Source: a virus. From it: a stretch of 64,000 bases of DNA. The notes under the pieces are model-generated. The model was not told the DNA's origin. It saw nothing but the letters and a program-made list of their open reading frames with translations, and made no database searches. The translations under genes and the position numbers were made by a program. Shown one piece after another: positions 756-47,694 of the stretch (its first letter is position 1; the number at the start of each line of letters is the position of its first letter). Location: the IMG/VR virus record IMGVR_UViG_3300026382_000006, positions 1 through 64,000 of that record. One strand, given 5' to 3'.

Positions 756-1075
756 CGATGTGTTCAGTATAGGACGCCACTCCTATACCCGAAGTTAATG
801 TTATGGATATAAAACTTTTCTTTATACCCATAATCATTAACTTCTGCTCTATGTTACCATAGAGACCAGACTATATCTTCACCCTCGACTTTACGTTAGG
901 GTGGGCGGCTTTTCGAGTGCCAGTGGCTTGCACCCTACTCCCTCACGGGATAGTCGTTACACCTTCTACCTATCCAGTCGTAACCAGATAGGAGCTTGGC
1001 TCGGGATTGTCCTAACCAAAATCACCTCTTTTATTAGATTAGGAGTTCCCCCGAATTAACCGCCTTAATTTTCCT
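756..1075 (-). other. Group I self-splicing intron, no ORF
   Basis: Minus-strand RNA shows the group I core in order: GGGGGAACTCC (complement of about 1041-1052), CAATCCCGAGCCAAGCT (P4-like, complement of 993-1009), then CGACTA (complement near 951-956) which pairs with TAGTC in AGATATAGTC (complement of 869-878), the classic P7. A 7-bp hairpin follows (847-864), and another at 768-787. The intron interrupts the beta subunit gene between the DDSKR and VRTGYD blocks. No homing endonuclease ORF fits inside. The 5' site is probably after U1076 or U1086. The 3' end is after G756 (preferred from RpoB spacing) or G835. Confidence 0.85.
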
Positions 1076-4000
1076 AGTTGTTTCCAACTAGTGAGGCTAA
1101 AGTTAACCTCTTTGAGTCATCTGTTGTACTAAATGGTGCTAATAATGCAGAGGTACTTAAAATGTTACTAAAACTTAATTCTTTTTCTTCACCTTTCATT
1201 CCTCTTAAATTTTTTATTATTGGATTAGCGGATAAGTATGCCGAAATACCGACATCACCACTATCTTTATGACCTTCAGAGATTACGCCTACATCATCAG
1301 GATGCAATTCTCTAGTACTCTTACTCATTGATTCCTTTTTTCTACCTAGAAAACCAGTATAAGTGACATCTTCTTTTTGTTTTAGATATATTATAGGATT
1401 TAAGTCGTCTTCTAATACACTAGCACTATCTTCATTTAGTATTCTCCATACACTATAAGGATCAAATACTAATCTATTTCTACCAAAGAATTCTTCATTC
1501 TTTTTATTTCTTATAGCTTCTACCATTTTGTTATATACCATCTGAGGAATTCTTTCATAACCTTTGATAACATAACCTTTTAAACTCTGTGGATGTATAT
1601 AATTATCATCAGCCAGCAATTCATTAGCTCTTAATAATAAACCAGTAAACGTAGTAGGTTCTTTCATTTGTTTTAATGTATTTGCTGTAACTGGATCTAT
1701 AAAAAGATTATCTAATAACTCTATTTCAGTAATTACATTTAAAGGTATTTTTAAATCTCTGAAAAAGCTTAGCATCAAATCTTTATCGTTAAATACATTA
1801 TCTGGATAACTTTTACATTCTTTTTTCCAATGTGTTAATCCTTTTAATAACATCATTTCTTTTTCATTTTTTGGTTTAACGAAATAGGTACTGAATTTGG
1901 TTTTAAATACAATTGTATTTTCATCTTTATTTTGTTTATTACCTTCATATTTCACATAGTCTATATTTAGTATTTTAAACATATTGTCTAATCCTAAGTA
2001 AAACATTAGCATAAATACTACTGGTGTATAATTTTTATAAATCTTTACCATTGAATAATCTCTAGTTAGTTTCTTTTTATCCAAACCTACAACATCAATC
2101 AGTTTACCTATTTTAATATACTTTTTATTTTTATACCTGTATAGTACATTATCTTTATCTATTACTAATATGTCGTTATCTATTGTACCGCAGATAACAT
2201 AACCATCCTTTTCAATATCTTCTAATTTTAGACCTTTCTCTATTACTATCTTCTCTCTATTTTCATAATCGAAATTAAAAAATATGTTATTTAGTCTAAA
2301 AGATTTTATATATCTCATAAACCATGTATATTCTATGGGTAACTTTAAATCAGGCGGAATTTCGTTACCTAAAACTAAGTTTCTAATTTTATTATTATCT
2401 AGCATTTTAGTCAATTGTTTTTTAATACTAAAACCTATATCGTATTTTTTAAGAGGTGCTTTATCTATAAATAGTTTACCATATGCACTCGACAGACTTA
2501 CTCTATTAAAAGCAATTTTTTTAATAGGCAGATCTTGTCTACTTTTTCGTAATAAATATCTGTTACCAGACATACTATAAACACCGTCTTCGTTTATTGT
2601 AGGTAGTTTTAATTTAACTTTATGAGTACCTTTTTTAATATCTGTAAAAGTAATTTCATGTATTTCATATTCTCCTAATATAGAATCTTCTTTTTCCACT
2701 TTATAATCTTTAACTAGCATACCTGCTCTTTGTAGACTGAACACAGTCCTAGTGATATCTTTTTTATAAACATGTTTTATATATTTTTTATCTATAGTTG
2801 TAATAGGGTCTTCTAGCATCTTTTTATCGAATGCTACTTTTACATTTGGTAATTTCTTTTCTTCACTCTTTATTTCTATTTCATGTTCACTTATTTCTAG
2901 TAAGTCTTTTATAGTATTTTCATCACCAAACGGCGAAGGAGTATTTAAGACTTCTTCAAATTGTTTCTTTATCTTCGTTAATTTTTTATTATCTAAATCC
3001 ATGTCCTTTGCTATAGCTTCTAATGTTTTATCTACATCAGTAGCAGGATTATCATCAGTAGTGAGCATTTCTTTTATATGTTTGTATTTGGGAATAGTCT
3101 TTATCTCTTCATCTATGTCTAATTCGGTTTCTTCATCTTTTTCTATTATCTTATCTATTTCCTTTTCATCGTCTATTACTGTATTATCATCGATTTCCTC
3201 TACCAGATATACTTTACTATTATCTTCATTATCTACTATGTTTGATAAATTAGTTTTTTCTTTTATATTTAGTATATCTTTTATTTTTTCTTCATGTTTA
3301 CCTGTTTCAATCTCATCTACGGTAAAACCAGGTAATACATACATCGCATGTAACATATAGTGTAATAATTTAAACATTTTATCAGGTTCTACTTTTGTAT
3401 TGTAATCTAGTTCGGGATATGTTTTAAGCATGCTGAATAAAATCCCTAAATTTATTATAATACCTTTATCTTCAAGGACAAATAGAATATTCACACTGTC
3501 CAAATCTCTTTTTTTCCTTATTAGGTCATATTTAGTTTCTATTTTAAATTCTTTAATTATTGCTTTAAATAGTTCTAAAATGTTCAATCTGTTATAATCG
3601 AAAAATAGATTTAATAACTGTCTATTAGTCCATTTTTGATGTATGTATTTTAATAAGATTTGTCTACTATAAAATGTAGATGGTAAATTCATTATTACAA
3701 AGTGATTAGGTTGTTCACTAGGTTTAAAATTCATATTGTTAATGTTTATTATATTCGAAAATATTGTGTTACCTATATTTCTAAATTTATAGTATTCGTC
3801 TAAATATAAGTTTTTATACCTATAGAATTGATTTATAAAACTATAATTGTAAATTATATTATATTTCCTAATTAGACTATGATTGTTTTCTATTTGTTTG
3901 TTTAATTTACTAGGTGGTACAATTTTAAAATCCGTAAATCTTCTTTTTAGATTATTATTAAATGTAGTTTCCGATACTGTTTTCTTTTTAACATCAAATA

Positions 4001-4223
4001 CTGGTTTATTATAATCTACTAAGTTTGTAACTATTCCTTTTTTAATATTTCTTAAATACGAAATATTTGTTGTTGGGAAAATGTTACTATCCATATTATA
4101 AAAATGTATAATAGTATTTCTAGGGTAGAAAATATTATCTAAATTAATCAATTTCGGAGTGACAAAGTCAGTCATTTTCCTAGTACCGTATTTTCTATAC
4201 CATTCTTTAAATCTTAAATCCAT
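1076..4223 (-). CDS. RNA polymerase beta subunit, first exon
   Basis: About 1049 residues are read before a stop that lies just inside the intron (1074-1076). Near the end, TRELHPDDVGVISEG..DSGDVGISAYLS aligns with [25 protein letters not shown] of RpoB, and TTDDSKRLTLASLV aligns with the DDANRALMGANM block that lines the active centre. An acidic, low-complexity stretch (roughly residues 310-450) looks like a phage-specific insertion. The start ATG at 4223 has AAGGAG six bases upstream and a TGAAAA element at 4245-4250. With the beta' pieces at 7685-9310 and 57238-58515 it forms a phiKZ-type multisubunit phage polymerase; virion or non-virion type cannot be told. Confidence 0.85.
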
Positions 4224-4244
4224 CTTATTCTCCTTATGTAGTGC

Positions 4245-4250
4245 TTTTCA
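4245..4250 (-). promoter_or_regulatory. Putative class 2 promoter element (TGAAAA)
   Basis: TGAAAA on the minus strand stands nine bases before the AAGGAG of the RNA polymerase beta gene. The same spacing recurs ahead of other operon heads (see finding on the second motif). Role as promoter is inference. Confidence 0.4.
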
Positions 4251-4270
4251 TGGAATTCAAACCCATATAG

Positions 4271-4310
4271 TAAAAAAGAAAAAAAGAATAGTTGGTTACC
4301 CAACTATTCT
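4271..4310 (-). terminator. Rho-independent terminator
   Basis: Minus-strand hairpin AGAATAGTTGG-gtaa-CCAACTATTCT (4285-4310) is followed by TTTTTTTCTTTTTT. It contains the stop codon of the 202-aa gene starting at 4904. Confidence 0.85.
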
Positions 4311-4904
4311 AACTTTAAATTTACGTAAGTATTTTGGGATGTATTCATTGTCTTCTTTCAATACTTCATAATTGCATTCATAACCCAATTCTTTTGTTAC
4401 AGTTTCCAAAACATCTATTGTCAAAATGTTAGTTATAACTTCATCTTCAATGACTTTATTTTCTCTGCATGTTGCAGCACCCAGTAAATCATCTATTATT
4501 CGTACATTGCATAAACTTCTGTTTAAGTAATCTTTCTGTTTTTTCGTTAGAAATCTTGTGTTACGTAATAATGTCCTTACGAATTTTTGCATAACATCCC
4601 AAAATCTTAGATGCCATAATGGTTCGGTATCGAAATCTGTAAAGTAGTCTCCATAGATTGTTTTAGCCAATTCAAAAGCACTCTCTAATGTAAAGTCTTT
4701 TCTAGTTTCAATATACTCACGATTCCAGGCACTGTAAATTACTCTACCAGATGTTGTAGTAGATTTTATCTCAATTCCTACTTCATTACCTATTTCGTTA
4801 AATACGTTAGTTAAATCATTAACTGTAAATTTAGTAGGTATTTTCAATTGTGCTTTATTTGCTGCGATTTCTGCTAATAGGTCCATTGGTATAATACTTT
4901 CCAT
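4296..4904 (-). CDS. Conserved-type hypothetical protein, 202 aa
   Basis: I do not recognise this protein. The start chosen is MESIIPMD at 4904, which has AAGGAGG eight bases upstream; a longer frame begins at 4964 but has no ribosome site and would overlap the preceding gene. It is soluble, mixed helical, with no obvious catalytic motif; FWDVMQKFVRTLLRN and the cysteine-containing LLGAATCRENK stretch are its most distinctive segments. It ends inside a strong terminator hairpin and is the last gene of the run that begins near 5771. Confidence 0.7.
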   Translation of the reverse strand: MESIIPMDLLAEIAANKAQLKIPTKFTVNDLTNVFNEIGNEVGIEIKSTTTSGRVIYSAWNREYIETRKDFTLESAFELAKTIYGDYFTDFDTEPLWHLRFWDVMQKFVRTLLRNTRFLTKKQKDYLNRSLCNVRIIDDLLGAATCRENKVIEDEVITNILTIDVLETVTKELGYECNYEVLKEDNEYIPKYLRKFKVRIVG

Positions 4905-4914
4905 AATTTCCTCC

Positions 4915-5472
4915 TTAATATAATAGTGATTTATTAATTGCTTCTCTATACAATAATAGGTCATCTACTCTTTCCAACACCACATTCATAAATACATTTA
5001 ATTTACCTCCTGCTTCTTTTGGACATATAACTGCTTTATGCCTGATTTGATCTATAAAATCAAATAGTCCTTCTATGTCTTTTGACATATGACAATAGTC
5101 GTTTTTTCTTTTAGGTCTGAATTTATTATCTAAATCTTTCTCTATTAATTTTATTATAATAGATAGGTTTTCATCAATTTCTTTTAAATTAGGATTTTCA
5201 TTTATTAATTCAGCACCTAATAATCCTACCGCATCTTTCAAATTACCTCTAACCTTTAACCAATACATAAAATTAAATTTATGTGGCTTTGCAGATATGG
5301 TATACATATATTTAAATTTACTAAAATCTTTTACATAAAATATTTTACTTATAGGATAGATTCCTGAACTATCTCCAATAATTCTGACTATTGTTTTATC
5401 ATCTTTTTCAACTGCTCTAGCAAGTGTAAGTAGACCTGTTATATGGCTTCTCCAAACAATACCTTTTAACAT
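4915..5472 (-). CDS. Hypothetical protein, 185 aa
   Basis: Function unknown. The ATG at 5472 follows AAAGGAG with good spacing, and the frame ends ten bases before the next start, so the two genes are probably co-transcribed. The protein is soluble and basic, with no transmembrane segment and no motif I can assign. The N-terminus (LKGIVWRSHITGLLTLARAV) could form a small beta-alpha unit. Confidence 0.7.
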   Translation of the reverse strand: MLKGIVWRSHITGLLTLARAVEKDDKTIVRIIGDSSGIYPISKIFYVKDFSKFKYMYTISAKPHKFNFMYWLKVRGNLKDAVGLLGAELINENPNLKEIDENLSIIIKLIEKDLDNKFRPKRKNDYCHMSKDIEGLFDFIDQIRHKAVICPKEAGGKLNVFMNVVLERVDDLLLYREAINKSLLY

Positions 5473-5492
5473 TTTAGACTCCTTTTTATTTT

Positions 5493-5771
5493 TTATTCTT
5501 CACATGGTAATGATGAAGTTTTAAGATATTTGAATGCTCTTAATGAGAATTCTCTTATATCGTTTATCTTCCAATCCAATTCTTCTACCTTTACATTTTT
5601 TTGGTTGGTTAATCTATTAAAAGATTCTATGTCTGTTAACAACGGAATAGCCGCGTATAATGGATCACCTTTAGCAACTGATAGATAATAAATGGTGTTT
5701 TTACTATCGCCTGTTAATAGACATAAATTTAATCTACATTTATCATAATCTTTTATTAAAACTACTTTCAT
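5493..5771 (-). CDS. Hypothetical protein, 92 aa
   Basis: A small soluble protein with AAAGGA upstream of the ATG at 5771. It is the first gene of a short minus-strand operon (5771 to 4296). No domain is recognised. It begins MKVVLIKDYDKCRLNLCLLTG and ends in a short acidic tail. Confidence 0.65.
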   Translation of the reverse strand: MKVVLIKDYDKCRLNLCLLTGDSKNTIYYLSVAKGDPLYAAIPLLTDIESFNRLTNQKNVKVEELDWKINDIREFSLRAFKYLKTSSLPCEE

Positions 5772-40468: not shown

Positions 40469-42580
40469 TTATTTTTTTATTTTTATAAAACTGTTAAACA
40501 TATCTATTATGGTGTTTTTGATTACGTCAATGAACTTGGTTGTTCTTGTACTGATTAAACCATCTATATCTATAAAATTACTTAATGGTATGGTATCATC
40601 CATTTGTACTGGTTCATCACCTTCAGGTATATCATAAGGCGTATTACTTCCTGTAATAAATTCTACATTATTTTTACTAAGATTTAATATATACAAGTCT
40701 CTATCAGTAATATTATAATCCTCTTCTGTATAGAGTTTTACATTTATAATATATACATCAGTATCCTGACTTAATCTCCAAGCTCTACCTATACTTTGGT
40801 CATACATATAAAGTCTAAACGGTACATTTAACATTAAGATTTGATTAGCACCTATTAATGGTACTCCAGTACTAAGTGATTGGTAAGTAGCTATTAATGG
40901 ATTTACTTTGCTTTTTATATCATTAAACCATTTTACATTTTTAGCTAAATCCTTTACATATTCTCCGTATACTCTAATAGGTTTTAATTCTTGTTTTATA
41001 GATTCTTCATAAGCTTTTTCACAGGTATTAATAAATGTACTAAATACAATGGTTTTCTTTTCTACACTATTGATAATATCCTTATAATCTAGATTTTTAG
41101 CTAATTTAGTATAGCATTCTAATCTACGTTTTAATACTATGTTTCCTAGTGCTTCACCCATTGCTTTTAGGTTAGGATATTTTACAATAGCAGCTAGTCT
41201 TTTAAATTCATCTTTTTCTTCTTTCACTAACATAGGTAAGATATACTTTTCTTCAATTTCTTTAGCTTCTTTTAATTGGTCTGCTAGAGGTAAAATAAAT
41301 TCTCTATGTTTAAAAAATGTTTTTACTAAATCCAAATATCTATTCATAATTCTCTTTTTATCGGTAACTATCCCTTTATTAACAGCTCTATCCAAAGCTA
41401 AATTTAATAATTTCAAAAAGTCTAAATAGAATTCATCGTAGTATTTTAGGTAATATTCCGTTTTCTCTTCTTTATATTGTTTCATATCTTCTCTAATTGT
41501 GGTTAATAGGTATTTTTTGTAATCTTTTAATTCTATTCTTATAGTATCCATAAATATTCCTGGTAGCCTATCGGTATCTCTATGTATCGTAACTCTGTAA
41601 TAGTCTAATTTCTTTTTTATAACATGTAAATCAGCAGATTTGAAATACAGTTCTACTAATTTTAGTATCTTATTTACTCTTTTATCCAACATTGCAGATA
41701 CTGCTGTCAATTCTTTAGCTGTCATCTTTATTGGAGTACCAGTTAATAAAGCAATATCCTCTATACCTGTAAAATTTACCAAATCTATTACACTTGCAGT
41801 ACGTTTTGCATCAATATTGTTTAAATTATGGGATTCATCTACTATTAAGAATGGTTTAATTTTCTTAATTTCATTTTTAAACTTATCATCGTTTACCAAT
41901 TTAATTATTGTTTCATAATTTGTAATTAAAAACTTTTCATTATTGAATGTAAAATCTTTAGTAGTTAAAATTTTATACGACTGTGGCTTTTTATAAAGTT
42001 CATTGGTGATAGATTTTACCCAGACTCTATCTAAAACCGCTTTAGGGGCTATAACAAGAAAACGCTTATAATTTAATAGTTCTCCGAGTGACAATGACAT
42101 ATATGTTTTACCGGTACCTACTGCTGCATCTAGTAGTACTCCCCTTATATTTAAATCTGATTTACTAGTTAAATAATGACTATATAACCTTAACTGGTGT
42201 GGTAAAGGTTTAAATTTTAATATTTTTTCTAACTTAGTTATATTTGGTATTTTAGTTTCTTGATTTAATAAATCTTTTAGGTAAGTCTCATTTTCCAGTA
42301 GGTGTTTTATTATATTCAAATTTACTATCCCGAAATGTTTAATAGCTAATTTTACCTTTTCATCATTTTCATATTCATAAATTCTTTCGATTATATTATA
42401 GAAATCAAAAAGAAAATAATCATGTATTTCTATTTTTGTTTTACTTAATTTAAATATTATCTTTAAAGTTGTATCGGTGACTACTGTTTTTAGTAATCTG
42501 TAGAAATTATTAGTATTATCCATTCTGAAAATAAAAAAATCTTTTTTCGTGTCTAATCTTATATTCAAGAATTTTGCCAT
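40469..42580 (-). CDS. Superfamily 2 (SNF2/DEAD-like) helicase, 703 aa
   Basis: Motif I is DAAVGTGKT (151-159), motif II DESH (248-251), motif III LLTGTPIK, and motif VI QSIGRAWRLSQDTDVYI, the order of SNF2-type SF2 translocases. Start MAKFLNIRLD at 42580 with AAAGGA; the open frame to 42652 overlaps the terminator of the previous gene and is rejected. Likely acts in replication, recombination or transcription remodelling, comparable with T4 UvsW-type proteins, though the exact subfamily is not clear. Confidence 0.85.
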   Translation of the reverse strand: MAKFLNIRLDTKKDFFIFRMDNTNNFYRLLKTVVTDTTLKIIFKLSKTKIEIHDYFLFDFYNIIERIYEYENDEKVKLAIKHFGIVNLNIIKHLLENETYLKDLLNQETKIPNITKLEKILKFKPLPHQLRLYSHYLTSKSDLNIRGVLLDAAVGTGKTYMSLSLGELLNYKRFLVIAPKAVLDRVWVKSITNELYKKPQSYKILTTKDFTFNNEKFLITNYETIIKLVNDDKFKNEIKKIKPFLIVDESHNLNNIDAKRTASVIDLVNFTGIEDIALLTGTPIKMTAKELTAVSAMLDKRVNKILKLVELYFKSADLHVIKKKLDYYRVTIHRDTDRLPGIFMDTIRIELKDYKKYLLTTIREDMKQYKEEKTEYYLKYYDEFYLDFLKLLNLALDRAVNKGIVTDKKRIMNRYLDLVKTFFKHREFILPLADQLKEAKEIEEKYILPMLVKEEKDEFKRLAAIVKYPNLKAMGEALGNIVLKRRLECYTKLAKNLDYKDIINSVEKKTIVFSTFINTCEKAYEESIKQELKPIRVYGEYVKDLAKNVKWFNDIKSKVNPLIATYQSLSTGVPLIGANQILMLNVPFRLYMYDQSIGRAWRLSQDTDVYIINVKLYTEEDYNITDRDLYILNLSKNNVEFITGSNTPYDIPEGDEPVQMDDTIPLSNFIDIDGLISTRTTKFIDVIKNTIIDMFNSFIKIKK

Positions 42581-42600
42581 AATAATCCTTTTGTTATATT

Positions 42601-42606
42601 TTTTCA
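42601..42606 (-). promoter_or_regulatory. Putative class 2 promoter element (TGAAAA)
   Basis: GTCTGAAAAAATATAACAAAAGG ahead of the helicase in short form; the 20-base block 42601-42620 is identical to 27638-27657. Confidence 0.45.
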
Positions 42607-42610
42607 GACA

Positions 42611-42660
42611 AAAAAGAAAACTTAGAAATGAATGGGGGTTAAATCTTCCCATTCATTTCT
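42611..42660 (-). terminator. Terminator of the 86-aa gene
   Basis: AGAAATGAATGGG / CCCATTCATTTCT on the minus strand (42624-42660), then AAGTTTTCTTTTTTG. Confidence 0.8.
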
Positions 42661-42899
42661 TCTATTAATAACCTGTTGAACTCTATAGCCTTCATTACCA
42701 TGTATAATCTTTCATTTAACTTCATTTTTTCTTCTTTGTTTAACTTATCACTGAAGATTAGATTAGATAGTTTATTTTTTAGTTTCTCACCTAACCCAAT
42801 CTTTTCTTTAATGGCAGTCTCGTAAGACATATTTCTGAAATGGCTACCAGGCACATCATACAAGAATTCTGATTTTTTAAATTCCCTTTCTTTTTCCAT
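42639..42899 (-). CDS. Hypothetical protein, 86 aa
   Basis: Unknown, basic and helical; AAAGG precedes the ATG at 42899, one base after the upstream stop region. It closes a minus-strand operon running from 46073 to 42639. No motif recognised. Confidence 0.65.
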   Translation of the reverse strand: MEKEREFKKSEFLYDVPGSHFRNMSYETAIKEKIGLGEKLKNKLSNLIFSDKLNKEEKMKLNERLYMVMKAIEFNRLLIEEMNGKI

Positions 42900-42900
42900 A

Positions 42901-43191
42901 TTAAACCTTTAGTAACTTATTTGTTAATACAAGTAATAAATAATAAATAGGTACAACAATTACTGCAACGAGTAAAACAACAGAACTAAATATTGCGCCT
43001 ACTACGCCCAAGATTAGACCACCTATTAAATAAATTATGGCCAATAAACCACTTTTAACCGCAATACCAAATTCTAAACCATTTTTAGGAAAACCATCGT
43101 TTACTATATAGAATGTAATCAAGCCCAAGCTAAGAATTATATAACATAAACCAATAATCATGTATACTGTGTTTATATTTAATATTTCCAT
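42901..43191 (-). CDS. Small membrane protein, 96 aa, three to four helices
   Basis: Nearly all residues are hydrophobic: INTVYMIIGLCYIILSLGL, VKSGLLAIIYLIGGLILGVV and FSSVVLLVAVIVVPIYYLLL form membrane helices. AAGGGG precedes the ATG. Position directly after the ThyX-like gene. Function unknown. Confidence 0.65.
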   Translation of the reverse strand: MEILNINTVYMIIGLCYIILSLGLITFYIVNDGFPKNGLEFGIAVKSGLLAIIYLIGGLILGVVGAIFSSVVLLVAVIVVPIYYLLLVLTNKLLKV

Positions 43192-43193
43192 TT

Positions 43194-44315
43194 TTAACCC
43201 CTTATTGCAATATAGAGATTTATGATTTCCCTTATAGCCTCAGCTACCTCTCTAGTCTGTTGTTGTGTTTTAGCTCCATGGAAATCATAAGCTCCTCTCT
43301 CTAATAGGAAATGTCCCCATTGATACGGATTGTTTAACCATCCACCAATAATCCATGTTTTAAATTTCATATGGTTATACCATCTATTTACTATTTCCTG
43401 ATGATAATTTAATTCTTTTAATAATTCTTGTACTTCGTCTATAGTAAATTCATTTGCTAATATATTTGGTAAACTTTTGAAATTTCTGATAATTAGATTT
43501 TCAATGTTTTCCTTATCGTTAATAGGCAGCATTTGATCTAATTCTTTTGCCTTAGTGAATAAATTATAAAGTCTAGATAACAATCTATTTTGTTTTAATT
43601 TTTGACCCAAATCATCAGGATTAAATTTATTTATATAATTCAAAAATCTATATATAAAATCATTAGGCAACCATGCTTCGTCTTCTTTTAGTACTCTTTC
43701 AGAAACAGCTACTTGTGATAACAAGCCATGCGTTCTCATTTGTGCAAAGACAAAATATGGCGCCTTCACCTCTACTATAAAATAATGTTTCATCAATTCT
43801 TCATTCGTATTAAATGGTATTAAGTCAAATGGTATACCTATATTTACTAACGCTCTAGCATTGGTAAATAATAATTCTTCACCATCTATTTCTTGTATAA
43901 ATCCAAATTTTGATAATTTGTTTTCATAGGTTCTATATCCCATAATAGCTAGATTAGTACCAGTTTCAATATCTTTTATAAAAACTTTATCTTTTGCTAT
44001 TATTCTTTTTACCACCACAGGACAATATTCCAACGGTCTACCAGCTGCGAGAAAATCTTCTTTTACTTCTTTTTGATTATCTAACTCTTCTAAACGATAA
44101 AAACAAATGTTTGCGGCTGCTTCTTTTAAAAGACCTTGAATTCTTTTTTTAGGATTTTTCGATTTGTTTTTACCTCTCGTAATTGCTGCTATTGATGTAA
44201 CGGTGTTTATTCTGTTTTCCATATTTGTATTAATTTCCGAATATTTACAACCTATTTTATCTTCAATAGTCTTTACATAACCTCTTGTGTACCATAGTTC
44301 TTGCATTATATCCAT
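43194..44315 (-). CDS. Divergent ThyX-like flavin-dependent thymidylate synthase
   Basis: RTHGLLSQVAVSER (about residues 193-206) resembles the ThyX signature RHRxxSxNxxSxR, with one extra residue and His in place of the second Arg. The C-terminal QWGHFLLERGAYDFHGAKTQ and TREVAEAIREI (325-357, quoted in part) follow the ThyX helix that ends in HFLxLRxxxxAQxEIRxxA. At 373 aa it is longer than usual ThyX (about 220-260). It would methylate, or otherwise modify at C5, a pyrimidine deoxynucleotide with FAD. It sits in a nucleotide-metabolism neighbourhood. Moderate certainty. Confidence 0.6.
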   Translation of the reverse strand: MDIMQELWYTRGYVKTIEDKIGCKYSEINTNMENRINTVTSIAAITRGKNKSKNPKKRIQGLLKEAAANICFYRLEELDNQKEVKEDFLAAGRPLEYCPVVVKRIIAKDKVFIKDIETGTNLAIMGYRTYENKLSKFGFIQEIDGEELLFTNARALVNIGIPFDLIPFNTNEELMKHYFIVEVKAPYFVFAQMRTHGLLSQVAVSERVLKEDEAWLPNDFIYRFLNYINKFNPDDLGQKLKQNRLLSRLYNLFTKAKELDQMLPINDKENIENLIIRNFKSLPNILANEFTIDEVQELLKELNYHQEIVNRWYNHMKFKTWIIGGWLNNPYQWGHFLLERGAYDFHGAKTQQQTREVAEAIREIINLYIAIRG

Positions 44316-44344: not shown

Positions 44345-44608
44345 TTATTTTTTAATTGTTGGTAAGACTTTTACTACCAGACCATCTGTTTCTAAATTCT
44401 TACAAATATGTGTAATTATATCAAATGCACTTTTGAATTTTCTATTAGGAGAATAATAGTTAGGTAGTAAATAGTTTTCATACGGATATCTCATCTTGAA
44501 AATAACATTGCCAGAAATAGTAGGATCAGTAATTTTGATCCTACACCATTTACCTTCTTTGTTATAATATTTGTAATATCCATTTTTAGATTTATATTTA
44601 TTCGCCAT
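44345..44608 (-). CDS. Hypothetical basic protein, 87 aa
   Basis: Start MANKYKSKNG at 44608 with AAGGAGG; it overlaps the end of the aminopeptidase gene by 11 bases. Basic, tyrosine-rich N-terminus (GYYKYYNKEGKW). Unknown role. Confidence 0.6.
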   Translation of the reverse strand: MANKYKSKNGYYKYYNKEGKWCRIKITDPTISGNVIFKMRYPYENYLLPNYYSPNRKFKSAFDIITHICKNLETDGLVVKVLPTIKK

Positions 44609-46073
44609 CTTCACCTCCTTCCATGTACATTGTATGTAATGTCGTTAAATATTGGTAAAATGTTTCTATTCCAAATCCTGTAGCTCCGTACTCGGCATAA
44701 CCAAAACCTTTTTCTGTCCATCCTGGTCCTGCTATATCAATGTGAACTAACCTATTGGGATTATTAATAAATTCTTTTAGAAAGAGATACGCTGTAATAC
44801 TGCCTGCTAGATCTGTACTGGCTACATTTCTGATATCTGCTATTTTACTTTTTAGAGTATCTTTTAATTTTTCATGTGTTTTCATATAACTAAATTCTTC
44901 ACCTACTGTTTCTGCTGTTTTTATAAACTTATTTATAAAAAAATCATCACTACCATGAATAGCAGCTGTCCATTCCCCTAGTGCTCTTCTAGCAGCTCCA
45001 GTTAATGTAGCAATAGTAAAGACCATTTGGTAATCTTTTATTTCTTCATCTACATATTGTAAACAATCTGCTAATACTAATCTACCCTCTGCATCGGTGT
45101 TTATTATTTCAATTGTTTTGCCATTTTTAGCAGTTAAAACATCACCGGGTTTATAAGAGTCAGCACTTATTAGATTTTCTGCAAAACCAACAACAACATG
45201 TAATTCTATGTTGAGATTTAACTTACTGACCATGTTTAGTATCATTAAGGCGGTAATAGCTCCTGCCTTATCGTATTTCATAGTTATCATACTGTCTGAT
45301 GGTTTAAGACTAGTACCGCCTGTATCGAAGTGCACACCTTTTCCTACTATCACAATTTTAGGTAGTCTATCACTTTCGTTAGTATTACTAGGTCTATAAG
45401 TATAATGTAATATTGTAGGTGAATGTTTGCTACCTTTGTTAACAGTAGTAATTAAATTATAGCCTTTGTTCAATAGGTCAGTTCTATCTAGTTTTTTAAT
45501 TACAATGTTATCCAATTGTGTTCTATTTTTATTAACGAACATAGACACTAGTTCATGGACATAGTCGTCTAGATCTACTTTATTATACGGTACATTAACT
45601 AAATGTTTTAAGGTCTTAATGCTATCGGATAACACTATTATATAATCTTCTAAACCTTTTAAATATTGTGTTCTTAATTCATAATTTATTTTTAATTCTG
45701 TTCTCTTTATTTCACAATCATCTAACCAAAATTCTTCATAATCTTTAGCCTTTACTAAACCTAATCTTAATCCTACCATAAAACCAATATAATCGATTAG
45801 ACTATCTATATTAGTTAATGGATTGTAATTTAGAACCTTTATTACATCACCAGCATCCACTTCTAATATATCTATTTTCTTATCTCTACAGATATTACCT
45901 ATTCTTCTACCTAATTCTCTAATCTCCAAACTGGATAGTGTCGTATGTATTAATACATACATCTCGTTTTCTATTGGATTTATCCAAATAGGATCACTTT
46001 TGGTAAGTTGCAAAACGTCTACTATGTAATTATACGCATCTTTGGTATTTTCGTTAACTGGAATTAATCTCAT
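44598..46073 (-). CDS. M17-family leucyl aminopeptidase
   Basis: A complete 491-aa M17 peptidase. VGKGVHFDTGGTSLKPS (around residues 240-257) and MKYDKAGA carry metal ligands and the catalytic lysine; NTDAEGRLVLADCL (about 330-343) carries the D-x-E ligands and the catalytic arginine. All expected catalytic residues of PepA/LAP are present. Cellular enzymes form hexamers and cut N-terminal residues; some double as DNA-binding recombination factors (PepA). AAAAGGAG and an early-type promoter precede it. Finding this family in a phage is rare. Codon use and AT content look like the neighbours. Confidence 0.93.
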   Translation of the reverse strand: MRLIPVNENTKDAYNYIVDVLQLTKSDPIWINPIENEMYVLIHTTLSSLEIRELGRRIGNICRDKKIDILEVDAGDVIKVLNYNPLTNIDSLIDYIGFMVGLRLGLVKAKDYEEFWLDDCEIKRTELKINYELRTQYLKGLEDYIIVLSDSIKTLKHLVNVPYNKVDLDDYVHELVSMFVNKNRTQLDNIVIKKLDRTDLLNKGYNLITTVNKGSKHSPTILHYTYRPSNTNESDRLPKIVIVGKGVHFDTGGTSLKPSDSMITMKYDKAGAITALMILNMVSKLNLNIELHVVVGFAENLISADSYKPGDVLTAKNGKTIEIINTDAEGRLVLADCLQYVDEEIKDYQMVFTIATLTGAARRALGEWTAAIHGSDDFFINKFIKTAETVGEEFSYMKTHEKLKDTLKSKIADIRNVASTDLAGSITAYLFLKEFINNPNRLVHIDIAGPGWTEKGFGYAEYGATGFGIETFYQYLTTLHTMYMEGGEDGE

Positions 46074-46106
46074 TTTGGACTCCTTTTAATTTGGTTTTTT
46101 CTCTAC

Positions 46107-46119
46107 TTAATAATATATA
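46107..46119 (-). promoter_or_regulatory. Putative early promoter TATATATTATTAA
   Basis: Perfect consensus on the minus strand, 34-46 bases upstream of the aminopeptidase start and downstream of another minus-strand gene's terminator. Confidence 0.55.
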
Positions 46120-46153
46120 GACAGAATTGCATAGAAATTAAGACATACAAAAA

Positions 46154-46183
46154 ATTAGTATAGGGTATTTACCCTATACTAAT
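46154..46183 (-). terminator. Terminator of the DUF4376-like gene
   Basis: ATTAGTATAGGGT / ACCCTATACTAAT on the minus strand, then TTTTTTGT; overlaps the stop region of the gene ending at 46179. Confidence 0.8.
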
Positions 46184-46610
46184 GTGATTCTTCACTAATA
46201 ATTTCTTTTACCTTTTTCATAGCTGCTTCTAATGCGTTACCTATAGCTTCTACAGAAATATTTCTGAATTCATTATCTACGTCTTTCCAAATAATGGTTT
46301 GTTTGTAGATCGCTTTATATGCTTTAGGAGGACTCATACCGTTGGCTATAGCCTGATTGTATTTAAAGTTAGCTAATGCTACTACGCTACTCATGTAATT
46401 TATACTACCTTCGTCTGCTTGAAATTTATAACCATCTACTTCAATAATAGCTGATAATTTTTTGTAGACCTTTTCAGCTTTTTTACCAGTAATTGGTACA
46501 GGTGCTAGTATTTTGTTTAAAATAAATTTGCCTGTTTTATCCATTTCAAGTTCTAATTTGTAACCTGCTAATTGTTCTGATTTTTTATACCATATTTCTT
46601 TACTACCCAT
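46179..46610 (-). CDS. DUF4376-like protein, 143 aa
   Basis: GYKFQADEGSINYMSSVVAL and IIWKDVDNEFRNISVEAI match the pattern FqaDexSxxxM...W.xaDN.....t.. of DUF4376, a domain common in tail fibre/fibre-chaperone proteins. The 185-aa gene at 49745 has a similar domain. AAGGAG precedes the ATG. Possible virion-associated or fibre assembly role. Confidence 0.5.
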   Translation of the reverse strand: MGSKEIWYKKSEQLAGYKLELEMDKTGKFILNKILAPVPITGKKAEKVYKKLSAIIEVDGYKFQADEGSINYMSSVVALANFKYNQAIANGMSPPKAYKAIYKQTIIWKDVDNEFRNISVEAIGNALEAAMKKVKEIISEESH

Positions 46611-46902: not shown

Positions 46903-47170
46903 TATTCTTTCCCTTATTCTTTAATAATAAACCTAAATTAGCTATTAAATCAGCTGCACCAGTAGTCTTTATCATACGTTCTGTAAACCAATAAATGACT
47001 ATTACTTTTATAACAAACCAAAGATTTTCTTTATCTATTGGATCTAGTTTAAACTTAGTTATTACAATATATACAATTAAACCTAAAGTAACGGTAGTAA
47101 TCATTGGTCTAATCATACTCTTCCATAATAATAACCATTTAGGTTCATAGTTTTCTGGATTATAATTCAT
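46874..47170 (-). CDS. Small membrane protein, 98 aa
   Basis: Two membrane segments (MITTVTLGLIVYIVIT and LWFVIKVIVIYWFTE) and a polar Asn/Lys-rich C-terminus. AAAGGAG precedes the ATG, which overlaps the stop of the NlpC-like gene by one base. Holin-like size and topology; unproven. Confidence 0.6.
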   Translation of the reverse strand: MNYNPENYEPKWLLLWKSMIRPMITTVTLGLIVYIVITKFKLDPIDKENLWFVIKVIVIYWFTERMIKTTGAADLIANLGLLLKNKGKNNGNTTEETQ

Positions 47171-47694
47171 TATAGCTCCTTTAAAAATTTAGTAAAGAAT
47201 GTAATAAATTTACTACGTTTATCCAAATTAGGTAGTAAGCCAAATAGATATGCTAGATAGTTAGGTGATATTCTACTAGGATCATATTTCCATAATTCTT
47301 TAAAACCATTTATTTTAAGAGCGTTAGCTACAGTTTCTGAACAAAACCAATTATTAGTTCTATCTTGTATAGGTAATATAAATCCTAATATACCCATCCA
47401 ATCATATTTATTACCATTAATAGAATTATAAAATTTTATAATTCTATCGTACTGTTCAGATGTTACCTCTAACAAAACGTAGTCCCATACATTAGTATCC
47501 AGTATGTGTTTTTTACATCTTACTTTACCATCTCTAGGAGATGAACTACATTGCAATATTTCTCCGTCTTTTTCTATTATTAATTCTACATGACTATAAG
47601 GTCCTCTGGTCCACCATGCTATTAGTCTATCAATCCATGTTGAACGCGGACCGTTTGATTTGTAAAATGCTATCTTTATTTCTTTTTTTTGCAT
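47170..47694 (-). CDS. NlpC/P60-like (YiiX-type) cysteine peptidase or amidase
   Basis: GPYSHVELI (H35) and WFCSETVANAL (C118) give the His-Cys pair of permuted NlpC/P60 (YiiX/LRAT-like) enzymes, with KYDWMGILGF typical of this fold between them. No signal peptide. Related phage proteins are often annotated as peptidoglycan or lipid hydrolases. AAGGAG precedes the ATG. It leads a three-gene unit with two small membrane proteins, which may be a second lysis-like cassette. Confidence 0.7.
   Translation of the reverse strand: MQKKEIKIAFYKSNGPRSTWIDRLIAWWTRGPYSHVELIIEKDGEILQCSSSPRDGKVRCKKHILDTNVWDYVLLEVTSEQYDRIIKFYNSINGNKYDWMGILGFILPIQDRTNNWFCSETVANALKINGFKELWKYDPSRISPNYLAYLFGLLPNLDKRSKFITFFTKFLKEL

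What the first reader, a model, noticed from the sequence alone, without database searches (positions are those of the whole stretch)
44598..46073. Complete M17 leucyl aminopeptidase in a phage genome
All metal-binding and catalytic residues are present, and an early-type promoter precedes it. The family is rare in phages. It could recycle amino acids for a large burst, process a host target, or bind DNA like PepA.
Basis: partly seen in the sequence, partly recalled or inferred. Interest (0 to 1): 0.7.

Follow-up and report, generated by a model that had tools for sequence, protein, structure and literature searches.

The report
Host-derived aminopeptidase in nucleus-forming phage
A 186-kb virus of bacteria, of the kind that builds a protein "nucleus", carries an intact peptide-trimming enzyme that it most likely took from an epsilonproteobacterial (Campylobacterota) host and switches on early in infection; the enzyme family is ordinary and occurs now and then in other viruses, but it was not found in any other virus of this group that was searched.

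Summary
Window 44598-46073, MINUS strand, is an intact 491-codon gene with a full M17 leucyl-aminopeptidase domain (PF00883, E 1e-90). All five metal ligands and both catalytic residues sit at bovine-LAP spacing. The genome is a 186,213-bp contig with a 125-bp end repeat. It belongs to the phiKZ/Chimalliviridae kind: multisubunit RNA polymerases, nuclear-shell protein, phiKZ-type head, sheath and terminase.

The gene heads a six-gene minus-strand run. It sits 47 nt behind a phage promoter motif shared by 11 genes (about 0.1 expected) that resembles OBP/N1M2 early promoters. Its nearest relatives are Campylobacterota aminopeptidases (45-53% over the catalytic domain), and the tree puts it inside that clade (98/97) on a very long branch. 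So it is an old, fully ameliorated acquisition, and the host is probably a Campylobacterota.

M17 is rare but not unique in viruses (66 IMG/VR loci, several origins). It was not found in 50 other phiKZ-like contigs or in phiKZ-like phages of INPHARED. Most likely it is an active early aminopeptidase acting on cytoplasmic peptides. PepA-like DNA binding is not supported. No activity has been shown. Ordinary enzyme, unusual carrier.

The parts
44598..46073 (-). M17 leucyl-aminopeptidase gene, 491 aa; N-domain about 1-155, catalytic domain about 156-477; metal/catalytic residues K245 D250 K257 D268 D327 E329 R331
46109..46120 (-). Phage promoter motif CTATATATTATT (then AAG), 47 nt upstream of the start; one of 11 such gene-proximal sites in the genome; resembles OBP/N1M2 early promoters
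   Evidence: consensus from PMC7058600
46154..46183 (-). Terminator-like hairpin (13 pairs, then a T run) between the preceding gene (46179-46610) and the M17 promoter
46074..46090 (-). Ribosome-binding site AAAAGGAG just upstream of the M17 ATG
   Evidence: sequence
44345..44608 (-). 87-aa ORF of unknown function; its Shine-Dalgarno (AGGAGGTGA) lies inside the end of the M17 gene and its ATG (44608) overlaps the M17 stop, so translational coupling is likely. The mechanically listed ORF begins at a GTG at 44614
   Evidence: coupling is inference
43194..44315 (-). 373-aa protein, no family match; ThyX-like motifs by eye only; next in the putative operon
42639..43191 (-). Two small ORFs of the same run (42901-43191, 96 aa, hydrophobic; 42639-42899, 86 aa)
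40469..42652 (-). DNA helicase (phrog_62), last gene of the same-strand run that begins with M17
1074..4223 (-). RNA polymerase beta-type subunit of phiKZ-like phages (phrog_3148), identifies the phage kind
53838..55514 (+). phiKZ-like DNA polymerase (phrog_3011), used to find this phage's relatives

Best explanation
The gene encodes a catalytically competent two-metal M17 leucyl-type aminopeptidase. Shown: intact ORF, intact active site, M17 fold in the model, phage promoter motif, ameliorated codon composition, position inside a phiKZ/Chimalliviridae-type genome, and phylogenetic place inside Campylobacterota. Inferred: an ancestor of this phage took the gene from a Campylobacterota host. 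The phage now expresses it early, at the head of a run of six co-directional genes, and the enzyme (a hexamer, as in the family) works in the host cytoplasm. There it removes N-terminal residues from short peptides released by the host's ATP-dependent proteases, topping up free amino acids (and possibly cleaving Cys-Gly, as the Helicobacter pylori relative does) for early phage protein synthesis.
For: PF00883 at 304.7 bits. Seven of seven catalytic/metal residues at exact spacing, although the whole protein is at most 38% identical to its nearest relatives. Catalytic domain 45-49% identical to the nearest six but N-domain 16-18%, so constraint is on the chemistry. AlphaFold2 model pTM 0.82 matches H. 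pylori LAP 4zi6 over the full length, TM 0.80. Early-type promoter motif, RBS and upstream terminator-like hairpin. GC3 0.197 against 0.194 +/- 0.038 for the phage's ORFs. Tree inside Campylobacterota 98/97. H. pylori M17 substrate data summarised in PMC12826064. In another viral clade M17 lies directly behind an ATP-dependent protease ATPase gene (phrog_4871), which fits a peptide-turnover role.
Against: No activity, expression or phenotype data. Almost every Campylobacterota genome sampled already has an M17 (296 of 298), so a plain dosage role needs a reason. No relative among phiKZ-like phages was found to carry it, so it is dispensable in the family. The score misses every NCBIfam leucyl-aminopeptidase equivalog cut-off (best 323.6 against 485), so its substrate preference may differ. 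No proteasome/HslV-type peptidase (PF00227) in the genome; Clp and Lon peptidases were not sought. The role (recycling) is inferred from the family, not from this phage.
Confidence: 0.55

Rival explanations
1. Targeted early host-takeover or counter-defence peptidase: the enzyme trims the N-terminus of a particular host protein or destroys a peptide signal or peptide antibiotic, and bulk recycling is incidental.
For: Early-type promoter motif shared with only about ten other genes; long branch and missed equivalog cut-offs suggest shifted specificity; the likely host already has an M17.
Against: No substrate known; catalytic domain conserved like a general M17; no defence-related neighbour was recognised, although no defence library was run.
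Confidence: 0.17
2. PepA-like DNA-binding regulator or recombination accessory protein, with peptidase activity secondary.
For: E. coli PepA does this (reviewed in PMC12826064); the model has the same two-domain layout and matches PepA 1gyt at TM 0.78.
Against: N-domain only 16-19% identical even to nearest relatives and net charge -7, while PepA's DNA groove is basic; catalytic residues are what is conserved.
Confidence: 0.06
3. Passenger gene: a host gene carried without benefit, not yet lost.
For: Not found in related phages.
Against: Long divergence with all seven catalytic residues kept and no frameshift; composition fully adapted; own phage promoter motif and RBS. A passenger would be expected to decay.
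Confidence: 0.1
4. Catalytically dead or non-enzymatic scaffold that uses the M17 fold.
For: Low-confidence loops at 256-264 and 408-420 in the model, the first beside catalytic K257.
Against: All metal and catalytic residues and the NTDAEGRL motif intact; the low confidence may come from the shallow alignment of 15 rows.
Confidence: 0.05

Closest known systems
Helicobacter pylori M17 leucine aminopeptidase (PDB 4zi6, 4zla)
   Same: Best sequence and structure match in the PDB (phmmer E 3e-64; TM 0.80 over full length), same fold and two-domain layout; same phylum as the gene's nearest relatives
   Different: 30% identity overall in the structural alignment; N-domain of Campylobacterota M17s nearly unrecognisable by sequence; encoded by a phage with a phage promoter motif
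Campylobacterota chromosomal M17 aminopeptidases (loci L231-L236)
   Same: 45-53% identity over the catalytic domain, by method; window protein falls inside the Campylobacterota clade with 98/97 support
   Different: N-domain 16-18% identical; very long branch (1.98); organism names of these genomes are withheld by the tool
M17 genes of other viral contigs (66 IMG/VR loci, e.g. L161, L164, L170, L174, L177)
   Same: Same family, on viral contigs; three (L161, L164, L170) also fall in the Campylobacterota clade
   Different: None of 50 carries the phiKZ-type RNA polymerase; one clade shares a C-terminal tail (IDEDMKY-like) that this protein lacks; one common origin with L161/L164/L170 neither shown nor rejected (AU p 0.31)
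E. coli PepA (PDB 1gyt)
   Same: M17 enzyme of the same fold (TM 0.78)
   Different: PepA also binds DNA through its N-domain; that region is not conserved here and is acidic
phiKZ-like nucleus-forming phages (Chimalliviridae)
   Same: Nuclear-shell protein, multisubunit RNA polymerases, DNA polymerase, head, sheath, terminase; 186 kb lies in the known 167-322 kb range (PMC10299810)
   Different: Proteins only about 25-39% identical to isolates; 28% GC; no true INPHARED isolate found with M17

Membership tests
Peptidase family M17 (PF00883) | M17 catalytic domain above the curated cut-off over its full length | tested here: met
   304.7 bits against 25, profile 4-309/310
Peptidase family M17 (PF00883) | Five metal ligands, catalytic Lys and Arg, NTDAEGRL motif | tested here: met
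   K245 D250 K257 D268 D327 E329 R331 at bovine-LAP spacing; NTDAEGRL 325-332
Peptidase family M17 (PF00883) | Two-domain fold (small N-domain, large C-domain) | tested here: met
   AlphaFold2 pTM 0.82, mean pLDDT 73.5; full-length match to 4zi6 TM 0.80; the N-domain is the weaker half
Peptidase family M17 (PF00883) | Homohexamer; metal-dependent aminopeptidase activity | not testable with these tools
   needs protein; monomer model only
NCBIfam leucyl aminopeptidase equivalogs (PRK00913 set) and PepB | Score above the curated equivalog cut-off | tested here: not met
   best NF002081, 323.6 against 485 bits; so it is M17 by domain, not a certified functional equivalent
PepA-type DNA-binding aminopeptidase | Basic, conserved N-domain groove that binds DNA | tested here: inconclusive
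   N-domain 16-19% identity, net charge -7 argue against; binding itself not testable
Chimalliviridae / phiKZ-like phages | Chimallin (nuclear shell protein) | tested here: met
   604-aa protein at genome 128422-130236, phrog_4795 E 2e-34
Chimalliviridae / phiKZ-like phages | Multisubunit RNA polymerases, DNA polymerase, head and sheath of the family | tested here: met
   phrog_3148, 2986, 2962, 3295, 3011, 3231, 3242
Chimalliviridae / phiKZ-like phages | Monophyly with known members; actual nucleus formation | not tested
   only protein-level similarity to INPHARED members; nucleus formation needs microscopy

The most novel reading that the evidence does not exclude
The M17 enzyme is an early host-takeover or counter-defence peptidase of a so far undescribed Campylobacterota-infecting branch of nucleus-forming phages: it was re-targeted through its fast-diverged N-domain to particular host peptides or protein N-termini rather than serving general recycling.
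Probability: 0.13. Interest if true: 0.68.

Novelty: new member of a known kind. Interest (0 to 1): 0.38.

Why it matters
M17 aminopeptidases are standard cellular enzymes, and no PHROG virus family matched this one. An intact, early-promoter-driven one in a nucleus-forming phage would show that such phages can recruit host peptide metabolism early. It also gives a concrete pointer that Campylobacterota are hosts of this phage group; three papers on nucleus-forming and jumbo phages (PMC10299810, PMC12908238, PMC13282480) mention neither Campylobacter nor an aminopeptidase in the terms searched. The activity is easy to assay.

Tried and rejected
(1) Nearest phage M17 in INPHARED: 11 hits. Those examined are bacterial DNA filed as phage: MT835496 is a GC-rich actinobacterial-looking scaffold with cellular housekeeping genes around it; AFYI01000007 and CAKLQH020000023 show pepA beside holC. 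(2) The first tree with all viral sequences put the window protein next to a group of short, very long-branched viral M17s; that pull disappeared once long-branch rows were left out. (3) Single-protein scans of IMG/VR with M17 and with the RNA polymerase found nothing; alignments were needed. (4) NCLDV capsid search to see whether the other M17-bearing contigs are eukaryotic viruses: no hit, but nothing rang in controls either, so no information. (5) Empty-site comparison in the nearest relatives: the neighbouring helicase was not found in their contigs, so absence of M17 there is inconclusive. (6) Structure of the 373-aa neighbour: pLDDT 42, not used. (7) One origin with viral trio L161/L164/L170, and sister relation to L231-L236: AU tests reject neither.

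Full report
OBSERVATION. The gene is real and exactly where stated, on the minus strand: 44598-46073, 491 codons, ATG to TAA. It matches the M17 catalytic domain end to end (PF00883, 304.7 bits) and M17 enzymes in the PDB, best H. pylori LAP. All seven active-site residues are present at the spacing of bovine LAP. No PHROG family matches, and all NCBIfam leucyl-aminopeptidase equivalog cut-offs are missed, so it is M17 by domain and divergent as a member.

CARRIER. The window is the first 64 kb of a 186,213-bp virus record whose two ends share 125 bp exactly, so the genome is probably complete. It encodes phiKZ-type RNA polymerase subunits, DNA polymerase, major head protein, tail sheath, terminase and a nuclear-shell protein. 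It is therefore of the nucleus-forming Chimalliviridae kind, remote from all isolates (about 25-39% identity). GC is 28%. Its size is within the 167-322 kb range reported for the family (PMC10299810).

EXPRESSION SIGNALS. Upstream lie, in order, a terminator-like hairpin with a T run, a TATATATTATTAAG motif, and a strong RBS. TATATATTA[CT]T occurs 35-55 nt before 11 ORF starts in the genome, against 0.05-0.09 in Markov shuffles. It resembles the predicted early promoter of phages OBP and N1M2 (KATATTATYWAAGTG in N1M2) and phiKZ's TATATTAC (PMC7058600). That it is early in this phage is inference from that likeness. The M17 gene heads six co-directional genes down to a helicase. The next ORF has its ribosome-binding site inside the M17 3' end and its ATG overlaps the M17 stop, so co-expression is likely.

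ORIGIN. Of 298 Campylobacterota genomes searched, 296 have M17; six of them reach 43-53% identity over the stretch that search aligned, 49-53% over the core by tblastn and 45-49% over the catalytic domain for the three checked in a global alignment. In a careful tree the window protein lies inside the Campylobacterota clade (98/97) with an end branch of 1.98 substitutions per column. Three other viral M17s (L161, L164, L170) also fall there. A single origin with them, or a sister relation to the six, is not rejected (p 0.31 and 0.43). GC3 equals that of the phage. So this is an old acquisition. A Campylobacterota host is a reasonable inference but was not tested independently.

CONSERVATION. 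M17 occurs in 66 IMG/VR loci among those with the scanned motifs, in several separate groups; none of 50 has the phiKZ-type RNA polymerase. Among 50 phiKZ-like IMG/VR records none has M17. INPHARED holds 272 records with the phiKZ-like DNA polymerase and 11 with an M17 hit; the M17 hits looked at were bacterial DNA. The gene is thus an accessory of this phage or its close kin. The closest kin are fragments in which the neighbouring genes were not found either.

MECHANISM. The catalytic domain is 45-49% identical to the nearest relatives, the N-domain 16-18%; between two Campylobacterota proteins the figures are 67% and 35%. Selection has kept the chemistry while the N-domain drifted. The model shows the M17 fold (pTM 0.82) and matches 4zi6 over the full length at TM 0.80. 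An active aminopeptidase is the simplest reading. Peptide recycling is the family's usual role, and H. pylori LAP acts on Arg-peptides and Cys-Gly (PMC12826064). DNA binding like PepA is disfavoured (N-domain net charge -7). A specific target cannot be excluded.

VERDICT. Observation right, interpretation partly right. An ordinary enzyme family in an unusual carrier: a new member of a known kind, interest moderate.

Noticed in passing
window 43194-44315 (-): 373-aa protein with no Pfam, PHROG, NCBIfam, PDB or INPHARED match; by eye it has ThyX-like stretches (MRTHGLLSQVAVSER and a C-terminal QQQTREVAEAIR); one 36%-identical homologue in IMG/VR record G369 (L326). Structure model failed (pLDDT 42).
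   Followed up: partly
L176, L177, L178, L181, L215 (about 3350-5626): In one viral clade an ATP-dependent protease ATPase gene (phrog_4871, 758 aa) overlaps the start of the M17 gene by 4 bases, suggesting a protease-plus-aminopeptidase unit.
   Followed up: partly
L192, L195, L202, L206, L212, L213: Several viral contigs encode M17 proteins of only about 300 aa, i.e. the catalytic domain without the N-domain.
   Followed up: no
L163, L174, L177, L190, L199 and others: A virus-only M17 clade shares a C-terminal tail ending in a motif like IDEDMKY that is absent from the window protein; class 3 lipase genes follow M17 in L163 and L190.
   Followed up: partly
MT835496.1, AFYI01000007.1, CAKLQH020000023.1 (INPHARED): Records filed as phage that show plain bacterial chromosome around their M17 gene (pepA-holC, or other housekeeping genes).
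   Followed up: yes
window 47170-47694 (-): PHROG labels this 'enoyl-CoA hydratase-like' (phrog_1128), but a weak NCBIfam hit and the NWFCSE motif suggest a YaeF/NlpC-P60 papain-like enzyme; the PHROG label looks doubtful.
   Followed up: no
G000 1-125 and 186089-186213: A 125-bp exact direct repeat at the two contig ends, as expected for a complete genome assembled as a circle.
   Followed up: yes
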